Shown one piece after another: positions 1,403 through 3,628 of a stretch of DNA of 64,000 nucleotides. The DNA lies in contig NZ_CP059692.1 of the NCBI RefSeq assembly GCF_014058705.1, forward strand, positions 2,237,001 through 2,301,000, written 5' to 3'. The DNA is from Aureimonas mangrovi (GTDB lineage: Bacteria > Pseudomonadota > Alphaproteobacteria > Rhizobiales > Rhizobiaceae). The notes under the pieces are model-generated. The model worked only from the letters and a program-made list of their open reading frames with translations, searched no databases and was not told the origin of the DNA. Position 1 is the stretch's first letter; each line of letters begins with the position of its first letter. Made by a program: the position numbers and the translations under genes.

Positions 1403-1487
1403 TGGTGCGGGTGGAGGGACTCGAACCCCCACGCTGTTAGGCGCTTGGACCTAAACCAAGTGCGTCTACCAATTCCGCCACACCCGC
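1403..1487 (-). tRNA. tRNA-Leu (anticodon UAG)
   Basis: Read on the minus strand this folds as a class II tRNA. It has acceptor GCGGGTG paired with CACCCGC, D-loop sequence TGGTAGACGC, anticodon stem CTTGG/CCAAG around loop TTTAGGT (anticodon TAG), a long variable arm, T-loop GTTCGAGTCC, and an encoded CCA at 1403-1405. It reads CUA and probably other CUN codons. It lies about 80 bases upstream of tig on the same strand. Confidence 0.97.
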
Positions 1488-1737
1488 TCGGCCATGAAGA
1501 CAGCCGTCGCGCGGCGCGCGTTCTATATCACCGGCGTTTTCAGCGTCAAACCGCAAAGTGGGCCTCTGTGCGATCCCTCGGATGCGGACCTTCCCTACCG
1601 CAATGCACAAAGCGCAGACCTGCCATGCGGAACGAACGCTGGTGAGAAAACCACCTCCCGCCTATCTCTCAACCATCGAAGCGGGGCGACAAACTCCGGT
1701 TCAAACGATTAGATCAGGAAAGGGAAAGGGCGCAGAC

Positions 1738-1881
1738 ATGAACCTCGTTCGTTCCTACGGCAACTGGCGGCGTTACCGCGAGACCTGCAGCGAGCTGAAC
1801 AAGCTGACGTCTCGCGAACTCTCCGACCTCGGTATCGCGCGCTCGGACATCCCGCGTCTTGCACGCGAGGCGACGCGCTGA
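1738..1881 (+). CDS. DUF1127 small protein (CcaF1-like)
   Basis: A 47-residue basic protein beginning MNLVRSYGNWRRYRET with the DUF1127 core L-x-x-L-T-x-R-E-L-x-D-L-G-I-x-R-x-D-I at its C-terminal half. Small DUF1127 proteins are common in alphaproteobacteria; the Rhodobacter sphaeroides member CcaF1 is an RNA-binding protein involved in sRNA maturation and RNA turnover, and its gene is cotranscribed with the CcsR sRNAs that follow it. The same arrangement exists here: the stop codon is only about 12 bases before the first hairpin of a tandem anti-SD RNA array. The ATG at 1738 is preceded by a purine-rich AGGAAAGGGAAAGGG stretch. The RNA-related role is inferred from the family and context. 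Confidence 0.88.
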   Translation: MNLVRSYGNWRRYRETCSELNKLTSRELSDLGIARSDIPRLAREATR

Positions 1882-1892
1882 CAGTCAAGGGT

Positions 1893-2002
1893 TTCGCCAC
1901 GGTCCATCCTCCTCCCAGGACCGTAGCGGATGAGCCTCTCGCATCCTCCTCCCAGCGAGAGGCACCTAACGGTGCCCGTCGGTCCTCCCCCGACGGGCAC
2001 CG
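1893..2002 (+). ncRNA. Cuckoo/CcsR (alpha-r14) type sRNA, unit 1
   Basis: Three consecutive hairpins. Hairpin 1 (1899-1924, stem ACGGTCC/GGACCGT, with an outer stem 1893-1897/1926-1930) and hairpin 2 (1934-1963, perfect 9-bp stem GCCTCTCGC/GCGAGAGGC) each expose CCTCCTCCC in the loop (1908-1916 and 1945-1953). Hairpin 3 (1970-2002) is a perfect 13-bp stem with loop TCCTCCC and looks like a terminator or processing hairpin without a strong T-run. Paired anti-Shine-Dalgarno loops directly downstream of a DUF1127 gene define the cuckoo RNA family (CcsR in Rhodobacter, alpha-r14 in rhizobia), whose members are stress-induced. Exact RNA ends cannot be seen. Confidence 0.87.
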
Positions 2003-2015
2003 AAAAGATCCAGAG

Positions 2016-2129
2016 ATTCGCAGCGGCCCATCCTCCTCCCAGGGCCGAAGCGAATAGAGCCTCTCGCATCCTCCTCCCAGCGAGAGGCCACCAAACGACA
2101 CCCGCCGGTCCTCCCCCGGCGGGTGTTGT
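2016..2129 (+). ncRNA. Cuckoo/CcsR (alpha-r14) type sRNA, unit 2
   Basis: A second copy of the three-hairpin unit. Hairpin 4 (2024-2047, CGGCCC/GGGCCG, with outer stem ATTCGC/GCGAAT at 2016-2021/2050-2055) and hairpin 5 (2059-2088, stem identical to hairpin 2) carry CCTCCTCCC loops at 2032-2040 and 2070-2078. Hairpin 6 (2095-2129) is a 14-bp stem with one G-U pair and loop TCCTCCC, followed by a short T-run (CGTTT), and is the likely end of the transcript. Stem sequences of hairpins 1 and 4 differ yet keep pairing, which supports a selected RNA structure. trmFO starts 87 bases downstream. Confidence 0.87.
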
Positions 2130-2215
2130 CGTTTGACGTTCTCCTCGTCGACGCCTTGCCGCGCCACCGAAGCTGCCGCCTTTCATGCCGAGGCGCCGGA
2201 TGGTATGACGCCGGC

Positions 2216-3628
2216 ATGTCGAAAGAACCCATTCACATCGTCGGCGGCGGCCTCGCCGGCTCCGAGGCCGCGTGGCAGATCGCATCGGCCGGCGTTCCGG
2301 TCGTGCTGCACGAGATGCGCGGCGTCACGGGCACGGACGCACACCAGACCGATGCCCTGGCCGAGCTCGTCTGCTCCAATTCCTTCCGCTCGGACGACGC
2401 GACCGCCAATGCCGTGGGCGTCATCCATGCCGAGATGCGCTTGGCCGGCTCGCTCATCATGCGGTGCGCCGACGAGAACCAGGTTCCGGCGGGCGGCGCG
2501 CTCGCGGTCGATCGCGAGGGTTTCGCGGCAGCCGTCACCGGCACGCTGGAAGCCCATCCGCTGGTCGAGATCCGGCGCGAGGAGATTTCCGGCCTCCCGC
2601 CTCAAGAATGGGGCCGGACGATCATCGCGACCGGACCGCTGACGGCGCCGGCGCTGGCCGAATCCATCCGCGCGGAGACGGGCGGCGATGCACTCGCCTT
2701 CTTCGACGCGATCGCGCCGATCGTCCATTTCGACACGATCGATCTCGACAAGGCCTGGTTCCAGTCGCGCTACGACAAGGTGGGCCCCGGGGGCACGGGC
2801 AAGGACTATCTCAACTGCCCGATGGACAAGGCGCAGTACGAGGCTTTCGTCGCTGCACTGACTGCCGGCGAGAAGACCGAGTTCCGCGAGTGGGAAGGCA
2901 CGCCCTATTTCGACGGCTGCCTGCCGATAGAGATCATGGCCGAGCGCGGCTCCGAGACGCTGCGCCACGGGCCCATGAAGCCGATGGGGCTCACCAACGC
3001 GCACCAGCCCGACATCAAGGCCTATGCCGTCGTCCAGCTTCGCCAGGACAACGCGCTCGGCACGCTCTACAACATGGTCGGTTTTCAGACGAAGCTGAAA
3101 TACGCCGAGCAGGTGCGCATCTTCCGTACGATCCCCGGGCTCGAGAACGCGGAGTTCGCCCGGCTCGGCGGCCTGCATCGCAACACCTATCTCGACAGCC
3201 CGCGCCTTCTCGACGGCACGCTGCGGCTCAAATCGCGCCCGCAGCTTCGCTTCGCCGGCCAGATCACTGGCTGCGAGGGCTATGTGGAATCGGCCTCCGT
3301 CGGTCTGATGGCCGGGCGCTTTGCGGCGGCGGAGGCGCTCGGGCGCGCCGTCACGCCGCCGCCTGCGACCACTGCGATGGGCGCACTTCTGGGTCATATC
3401 ACCGGCGGCCACATCCTGGCCGAGGAAGAGGGCGGCAAACGTTCCTTCCAGCCGATGAACGTCAATTTCGGGCTGTTCCCGCCGGTGGAGGTCCCGCGCG
3501 AGGAAGGCAAGCGGCTGCGCGGAAAAGAAAAGACCATCGCCAAACGGCGCGCGCTCTCCGCCCGAGCGCTCGCGGACTTCGCGGTCTGGCTCGACGGGCA
3601 GTCTGCCTCAGCCGCCGCTGCCGCCTGA
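2216..3628 (+). CDS. trmFO: Methylenetetrahydrofolate-tRNA-(uracil-5-)-methyltransferase TrmFO
   Basis: FAD- and folate-dependent enzyme that makes 5-methyluridine at position 54 of the tRNA T-loop. The 470-residue protein starts [19 protein letters not shown], with a GxGxxG-type FAD-binding site at residues 9-14, then the family segments [18 protein letters not shown] and [11 protein letters not shown], and ends in the conserved [10 protein letters not shown] region. The ATG at 2216 gives the family N-terminus; no strong SD is visible. The last 21 bases overlap the DUF4153 gene tail to tail. Confidence 0.97.

What the first reader, a model, noticed from the sequence alone, without database searches (positions are those of the whole stretch)
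1738..2134. DUF1127 gene followed by two tandem cuckoo-type anti-SD RNAs
A 47-residue DUF1127 protein is followed within 12 bases by six hairpins arranged as two three-hairpin units. Four loops read CCTCCTCCC, an anti-Shine-Dalgarno sequence. This reproduces the Rhodobacter CcaF1-CcsR locus and rhizobial alpha-r14 RNAs. The protein and RNAs may form one stress-regulated module in which the protein affects processing of the RNAs beside it.
Basis: partly seen in the sequence, partly recalled or inferred. Interest (0 to 1): 0.8.

Follow-up and report, generated by a model that had tools for sequence, protein, structure and literature searches.

The report
Small-protein gene with tandem regulatory RNAs
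A gene for a tiny arginine-rich protein is followed at once by two copies of a known small RNA whose loops can cover ribosome-binding sites; it is a well-preserved member of a known family of loci, and comparison of promoters suggests that an oxidative-stress regulator, not the heat-shock system, switches it on.

Summary
A 47-aa DUF1127 gene (1738-1881) is followed, 7 nt after its stop codon, by two tandem copies of Rfam RF02344 (ar14, the alpha-r14/cuckoo family) at 1889-2005 (85.6 bits) and 2013-2131 (90.0 bits), + strand, cut-off 58.8. They form six hairpins with anti-Shine-Dalgarno loops. This is the known "CIN1" arrangement, here in an Aureimonas-type genome: a new member of a known kind.

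Added here: (1) the site tRNA-Leu(TAG) - DUF1127 - ar14 - trmFO recurs across genera, and tandem ar14 there is not unusual (13 of 80 named loci). (2) Promoter comparison points to sigma70 plus a VtlR/LsrB-type box, not the Rhodobacter RpoH type; the genome has an LsrB orthologue with both conserved cysteines. The window's own box departs from the published motifs, so this step is inferred. (3) Genes whose ribosome site pairs with the loops over seven bases (GGGAGGA) include many tripartite/TRAP uptake and acyl-CoA genes; two other ribosome-site classes show none (post hoc, capped lists).

Best reading: an LsrB-activated transcript giving a small protein plus two sRNAs that silence uptake and catabolic mRNAs. 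Nothing was measured experimentally.

The parts
1406..1487 (-). tRNA-Leu (context; divergent neighbour)
   Evidence: Rfam tRNA 56.8 bits; tRNA-Leu(TAG) at this place in relatives
1604..1628 (+). putative VtlR/LsrB-type box, TGC-N7-GCA-N2-GC-N-GC-Y-ATGC, one mismatch
   Evidence: only site with at most 1 mismatch in the 64-kb window; one of 9 such in the genome; aligned in 18 promoters. Against the published forms: 1 mismatch to A-N3-CA-N3-ATGC, 5 of 15 to the Brucella motif
1639..1667 (+). putative sigma70 promoter: CTGGTG (1639-1644), 17 nt, CTATCT (1662-1667); start site expected near 1674
   Evidence: alignment of 18 promoters, positions checked; the strict consensus scan found no sigma70 hit, so inferred
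1738..1881 (+). DUF1127 small protein, 47 aa
   Evidence: PF06568 51.6 bits; 42-83% identical to 9 relatives in alignment A1
1889..2005 (+). ar14/cuckoo RNA copy 1 (three hairpins; no U-run after hairpin 3)
   Evidence: RF02344 85.6 bits
1899..1924 (+). copy 1 hairpin 1, loop ATCCTCCTCCCA
1934..1963 (+). copy 1 hairpin 2, loop ATCCTCCTCCCA
1970..2002 (+). copy 1 hairpin 3, loop TCCTCCC
2003..2023 (+). A-rich linker between the copies, possible RNase E processing site (inference)
   Evidence: sequence
2013..2131 (+). ar14/cuckoo RNA copy 2 (three hairpins; keeps the hairpin-3 form of single-copy relatives)
   Evidence: RF02344 90.0 bits; alignment A2
2024..2047 (+). copy 2 hairpin 1, loop ATCCTCCTCCCA
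2059..2088 (+). copy 2 hairpin 2, loop ATCCTCCTCCCA
2095..2129 (+). copy 2 hairpin 3, loop TCCTCCC, likely terminator
   Evidence: terminator role inferred (the simple scan did not flag it)
2216..3628 (+). trmFO (context; downstream neighbour kept in many relatives)
   Evidence: NF003739 673.5 bits, TIGR00137 522.8 bits

Best explanation
One transcript starts near 1674, carries the DUF1127 reading frame and two ar14 sRNAs, and ends at the hairpin at 2095-2129. RNase E-type cleavage in the single-stranded linkers frees one or two stable RNAs of about 110-120 nt. Their stem-displayed CCUCCUCCC/UCCUCCC loops pair with extended Shine-Dalgarno sequences (GGGAGGA and longer) and block translation start of many mRNAs, mainly for solute uptake and organic-acid/acyl-CoA catabolism. 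Transcription is most likely activated by the LsrB/VtlR regulator encoded beside trxB, so the unit answers redox or nutrient stress. The 47-aa protein made from the same transcript either helps mature the RNAs (as reported for CcaF1) or acts separately on sensor kinases (as reported in Agrobacterium). Shown here: gene content, RNA family, predicted structure, conserved site, an LsrB orthologue. Inferred: promoter, processing, targets, role of the protein.
For: Rfam hits; folding (in 48 of the 49 above-cut-off units, 143 of 144 CCUCC motifs are predicted unpaired and 47 of 48 units have three or more, no shuffled control run); compensatory changes between the copies. Linkage: of 103 ar14 matches in 41 genomes 85 were read, all 49 above cut-off among them; 57 of 85 (31 of 49) lie downstream of a same-strand DUF1127, median gap 8 nt. 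From the protein side, of 80 named DUF1127 loci 60 have ar14 above cut-off downstream, 4 upstream, 16 none. Promoter: the composite box (at most 2 mismatches) ends 75-140 nt upstream of DUF1127 in 66 of 80 named loci and occurs at 5 other places in 471,153 positions; the published form A-N3-CA-N3-ATGC does so in 31 of 80, 126-fold enriched; two reversed controls in 0 of 80. LsrB orthologue: best PDB match 9HH1, 459.7 bits over all 298 residues; 9HH1 is A. tumefaciens LsrB, whose C144/C273 are the conserved pair (PMC11975290, passages); here C142/C271, which the match offset of 2 puts at those places; next to trxB. VtlR binding to and activation of the DUF1127 gene atu1667 in A. tumefaciens, and LsrB binding to the NfeR1 promoter, are in print (PMC7486931, PMC10746234, passages). 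Loop-dependent silencing is in print for NfeR1 (PMC10746234, passages). Targets.
Against: No expression data. The window's box matches neither published motif exactly: 1 mismatch to A-N3-CA-N3-ATGC and 5 of 15 to the Brucella motif. Up to 3 mismatches the composite is not enriched in the window (6 sites, 9.1 expected), and up to 2 it is barely so in the genome (58 against 42 reversed). The named loci are relatives, so counts are not independent, and the composite was written after seeing the alignments. 14 of 80 loci lack it, among them the four with ar14 upstream, three Hoeflea loci and three A. ureilytica copies. VtlR/LsrB regulons are reported to differ between species; one paper finds LsrB not involved in AbcR expression in S. 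meliloti (PMC7486931, passages). The target enrichment is post hoc and shows a ribosome-site class, not regulation. The loops can also pair, with interruptions, with the unit's own DUF1127 ribosome site (-9.7 and -12.3 kcal/mol), so specificity by duplex energy is not clean. 28 of 85 ar14 matches have no DUF1127 upstream, and two of the genome's three DUF1127 genes have no above-cut-off ar14.
Confidence: 0.66

Rival explanations
1. A CcaF1-CcsR copy in the strict sense: RpoH-driven, with the protein binding the precursor and working with RNase E to mature the RNAs.
For: Same order of parts; [quoted passage not shown] The 7-nt gap could couple translation of the protein to folding of hairpin 1 (inference).
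Against: Protein 47 aa, not 71; two RNAs, not four; no CTTG on the + strand between the tRNA gene and the DUF1127 start (the one CTTG in 1401-1740, at 1444, lies in the tRNA; that CTTG belongs to an RpoH -35 element is recalled); the conserved promoter elements are of another type.
Confidence: 0.15
2. The RNAs and the protein merely share a transcript: the protein acts on sensor kinases such as PhoR, the RNAs act in trans, with no functional link.
For: A. tumefaciens short DUF1127 proteins are reported to act through PhoR, and four diverse DUF1127 proteins restored pstS regulation there (PMC12501420, passages). ar14 without DUF1127 upstream and DUF1127 without ar14 exist; in four named loci ar14 lies upstream of DUF1127.
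Against: Linkage is kept across genera with a tight gap (median 8 nt), and in one genome of the genus (G019) the whole unit recurs as a block.
Confidence: 0.3
3. The hairpins mainly protect the 3' end of the DUF1127 mRNA or end its transcription; the loops matter little.
For: They lie directly behind the stop codon and are very stable.
Against: Stems change with compensation while loops stay fixed; copies without a DUF1127 upstream exist; mutating the loops abolished silencing of ntrB by NfeR1 (PMC10746234, passages).
Confidence: 0.05

Closest known systems
CIN1 locus (short DUF1127 gene with CcsR-like/cuckoo RNAs)
   Same: Order, orientation, short protein, anti-SD loops. Labelled so by Reinkensmeier and Giegerich 2015 according to PMC10253847 (passage); that paper itself was not held.
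   Different: No difference found that would exclude it; here two three-hairpin units.
ar14 (RF02344) / NfeR1 of Sinorhizobium meliloti
   Same: Three hairpins with anti-SD loops, above the family cut-off; promoter box of LsrB type (here inferred).
   Different: NfeR1 is described as a 123-nt transcript with its own promoter (PMC10746234, passages); here two copies follow a coding sequence.
CcaF1-CcsR1-4 of Rhodobacter sphaeroides
   Same: DUF1127 gene followed by tandem homologous sRNAs.
   Different: 71 aa versus 47 aa, four versus two RNAs, RpoHI/RpoHII promoter versus predicted LsrB-type promoter (PMC10253847, passages).
VtlR-activated DUF1127 genes (atu1667 of A. tumefaciens; its stated orthologues BAB1_0914 and BAB2_0512 of Brucella abortus)
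   Same: DUF1127 gene behind a VtlR-type box; the 11 named loci titled Brucella have ar14 20-96 nt downstream of DUF1127.
   Different: The passages read treat them as small proteins or, for atu1667, possibly an sRNA; none describes a protein plus ar14 on one transcript.

Membership tests
ar14 sRNA (RF02344) | score above Rfam gathering cut-off over the full model | tested here: met
   85.6 and 90.0 bits, model 1-123, cut-off 58.8
ar14 sRNA (RF02344) | three hairpins with the anti-SD motif unpaired | tested here: met
   the third loop has the shorter TCCTCCC
ar14 sRNA (RF02344) | accumulates as a discrete RNA of about 110-125 nt | not testable with these tools
   needs Northern blot or RNA-seq
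CIN1 locus | short DUF1127 gene adjacent to cuckoo RNAs, same strand | tested here: met
   gap 7 nt, same strand; definition taken from a passage of PMC10253847
CcaF1-CcsR operon | RpoHI/RpoHII promoter | tested here: inconclusive
   no CTTG on the + strand between 1488 and 1737; another conserved promoter type aligned; no RpoH profile was run
CcaF1-CcsR operon | 71-aa protein and four CcsR RNAs | tested here: not met
   47 aa, two RNAs
CcaF1-CcsR operon | protein binds RNA and works with RNase E in maturation | not testable with these tools
   biochemistry needed
VtlR/LsrB regulon | published VtlR box (CAATGCAGCCATGCA; A-N3-CA-N3-ATGC) | tested here: not met
   window: 5 of 15 mismatches and 1 mismatch; 31 of 80 named loci match the second form exactly
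VtlR/LsrB regulon | composite box aligned at the same promoter position | tested here: inconclusive
   1 mismatch at 1604-1628, aligned; pattern derived from the same family of promoters
VtlR/LsrB regulon | LsrB orthologue in the genome | tested here: met
   459.7 bits to 9HH1, trxB neighbour, two conserved Cys

The most novel reading that the evidence does not exclude
The locus is the output arm of a redox-gated catabolite-repression circuit: LsrB activates one transcript that makes both a small protein and anti-SD sRNAs, and an extended ribosome site, GGGAGGA, serves as a shared address that marks tripartite/TRAP uptake and acyl-CoA catabolism genes for joint silencing. The DUF1127 genes known as VtlR targets and the alpha-r14 sRNAs known as LsrB targets would then be two halves of the same ancestral transcript.
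Probability: 0.28. Interest if true: 0.65.

Novelty: new member of a known kind. Interest (0 to 1): 0.36.

Why it matters
The locus itself is ordinary for its group. If the VtlR/LsrB link holds, it joins two lines of work (DUF1127 small proteins as VtlR targets; alpha-r14 sRNAs as LsrB targets) and warns that deleting such a "small protein" gene may also change an sRNA on the same transcript. This bears on the question, raised in PMC12501420 (section heading seen), whether DUF1127 is an RNA- or a protein-binding domain. The GGGAGGA gene class gives a concrete, testable target list.

Tried and rejected
RpoH-type promoter: no CTTG between 1488 and 1737; set aside, not excluded by a profile. Sigma70 consensus scan: no hit, so the promoter rests on comparison. 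The simple terminator scan did not flag 2095-2129. The 14-nt short box alone is too loose: 14 sites on the + strand of the window with at most one mismatch; replaced by the composite. Genome-wide composite boxes with at most 2 mismatches: 58 against 42 for the reversed pattern, so mostly chance; the sequences of 12 of these sites (9 with at most one mismatch, 3 with two) and of L003 were printed, ORFs listed for three. RNAalifold on alignment A2 recovered hairpin 3 only (9 pairs, 7 with a double change), because hairpins 1 and 2 differ in length; covariation of those rests on the two window copies. AbcR beside lsrB: no Rfam hit above cut-off in L124. NCBIfam has no hit for the 47-aa protein; no solved structure resembles DUF1127 convincingly (best E 0.029). 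Structure prediction was not run.

Targets: enrichment of any solute receptor in the GGGAGGA class is weak (13 of 72 against 4 of 60, p 0.04); the stronger contrast (24 of 72 against 0 of 60, p 6e-8) uses categories chosen after seeing the hits and sums Pfam families, taken as distinct proteins. Each Pfam tally shows only 25 families (of 67, 33 and 45 found), so weaker single hits are unseen. The controls are smaller and hold more short, probably chance, ORFs. Rows dropped: 14 of 86 GGGAGGA sites (13 ORFs under 80 aa, and L243, a longer reading of L244); 10 of 34 TAAGGA and 28 of 64 AAGGAGA ORFs under 80 aa; one of 35 TAAGGA sites was never fetched. 18 below-cut-off ar14 matches of 103 were not read; one of the 49 above-cut-off units (L051, like L050) was left out of A2.

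Full report
What is there. Reading frame 1738-1881 (+) encodes a 47-aa DUF1127 protein (51.6 bits, cut-off 23.3). Seven bases after its stop codon begin two full-length copies of Rfam family ar14 (RF02344), 1889-2005 and 2013-2131, 85.6 and 90.0 bits against a cut-off of 58.8. The region folds far better than shuffles (z = -10.6) into six hairpins. Four loops read CCTCCTCCC, a 9-mer found 51 times in the 3.49-Mb genome; the other two read TCCTCCC.

The two copies are paralogues, 82% identical over 117 aligned bases. Of 38 pairs in the fold of copy 1, 27 are unchanged in copy 2, 5 differ on both sides and still pair, 2 differ on one side and still pair, and 4 are not kept: three belong to an outer helix formed by copy 1 alone and one lies beside the internal loop of hairpin 1. 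The CCTCCTCCC and TCCTCCC loops are identical. Copy 2 keeps the hairpin-3 form of single-copy relatives, and copy 1 has no U-run, which suggests one transcript ending after copy 2 (inference).

Where it comes from. The closest named DUF1127 loci belong to Aureimonas (up to 83% identical), and contigs of genomes listed as same genus have the lengths of named Aureimonas contigs (for example 686,877 bases, G006 and A. flava). In 23 of 80 fetched stretches (78 from relatives of the same genus, family or order, 2 from the window's own genome) TBLASTN finds TrmFO, and in 19 of 80 ARAGORN finds tRNA-Leu(TAG). Among 80 named DUF1127 loci, 68 have trmFO downstream on the same strand within the 3-kb flank, sometimes nearly 2 kb away. 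The window unit is therefore at an old, conserved site. Two or more ar14 copies above cut-off follow DUF1127 in 13 of 80 named loci, four in one Aurantimonas (L175), so the tandem pair is not unusual.

Linkage. Of 103 ar14 matches in 41 genomes I read 85, all 49 above cut-off among them: 57 of 85 and 31 of 49 lie downstream of a DUF1127 on the same strand; the median gap is 8 nt and 49 of the 57 are within 15 nt. From the other side, 60 of 80 named DUF1127 loci have ar14 downstream, 4 upstream (three titled Rhizobium, one Rhizobiales bacterium), 16 none above cut-off. The 80 are the best matches to a window-led alignment, not a random sample. The genome's other two DUF1127 genes have no above-cut-off ar14.

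Promoter. Aligning 18 promoters at this site shows a shared block. Its inner half resembles the VtlR box reported for Brucella, CAATGCAGCCATGCA (PMC12595884, passage), the A. tumefaciens form GCAT-N3-TG-N3-T (PMC7486931, passages) and the LsrB site TGCA-N6-GCAT of NfeR1 (PMC10746234, passages). In 80 named loci the A. tumefaciens form ends 75-140 nt upstream of DUF1127 in 31, 126 times the density elsewhere; two reversed controls give 0 of 80; a composite pattern written from the alignments is there in 66 of 80 and at 5 other places in 471,153 positions. The window has the composite at 1604-1628 with one mismatch, its only site with at most one, but it has one mismatch to the A. tumefaciens form and five of fifteen to the Brucella form. 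The genome has a LysR regulator beside trxB whose best PDB match is A. tumefaciens LsrB (9HH1, 459.7 bits), with the two conserved cysteines. Control by LsrB/VtlR is thus likely but inferred for this genome; VtlR/LsrB targets are reported to differ between species (PMC7486931, passages). In A. tumefaciens, VtlR binds and activates the DUF1127 gene atu1667, and its authors left open whether it is a protein gene or an sRNA (PMC7486931, passages).

Targets. Both loop types pair with GGGAGGA over seven bases (-14.7 and -14.1 kcal/mol) but over only four or five with TAAGGA or AAGGAGA (-4.2 to -7.5); the unit's own DUF1127 ribosome site pairs with interruptions (-9.7 and -12.3). GGGAGGA stands 3-10 nt before ATG at 86 places, against 12 for the reversed pattern. 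Of 72 ORFs of 80 aa or more scanned (of 86 sites), 12 family hits are tripartite/TRAP transporter families and 12 acyl-CoA families; for 24 TAAGGA and 36 AAGGAGA ORFs none of these families is in the 25 listed. The categories were chosen after seeing the hits, and the result shows a class of ribosome sites, not regulation. It is in line with NfeR1 target candidates, mostly ABC transport systems (PMC10746234, passages), although the transporter types here differ.

How it most likely works: LsrB-activated transcript, protein plus sRNAs, loop-to-Shine-Dalgarno silencing. Whether the protein helps the RNAs (as CcaF1) or acts on kinases (as in A. tumefaciens) stays open.

What is known. DUF1127 with cuckoo RNAs is already named CIN1 (PMC10253847, passage). 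The paper that defined it and the CcaF1 paper of 2021 were not held. In five searches of the held library I saw no paper that joins VtlR/LsrB, DUF1127 and ar14 on one transcript; I read passages only, and two papers with partly fitting terms did not make the link in the passages seen (PMC8844928; PMC12501420). A paper outside the library may. Verdict: real, correctly read, a new member of a known kind, with a corrected likely regulator.

Noticed in passing
L003:1501-1611 - (own genome 3394680-3394790 -): A weak ar14-like RNA (34.2 bits, below cut-off) with a TTCCTCCC loop and a U-tailed terminator hairpin, with a VtlR-like box (2 mismatches) beside it; probably an orphan, degenerate ar14.
   Followed up: partly
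   Followed up: partly
L208:1501-1525 + (own genome 2683064): The only exact composite VtlR-type box in the genome lies 71 nt upstream of an ORF (1597-2274) that looks like an ExoY-type sugar transferase by eye; no profile was run.
   Followed up: partly
L217:1501-1525 + (own genome 105742): A near-palindromic VtlR-type box (2 mismatches) upstream of a 52-aa small-protein ORF.
   Followed up: no
L103 (G031, 2.3-Mb genome of another family): Four DUF1127 frames alternating with three ar14 matches (all below cut-off) beside trmFO.
   Followed up: partly
L196, L201, L203, L204 (three titled Rhizobium, one Rhizobiales bacterium): Order reversed: ar14 upstream of DUF1127, both before trmFO; no composite box found before either within 2 mismatches, so promoters appear to differ.
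   Followed up: partly
L209:1327-1476 + (own genome near 98049): Match to sRNA family ar7 just under its cut-off (57.7 of 60 bits).
   Followed up: no
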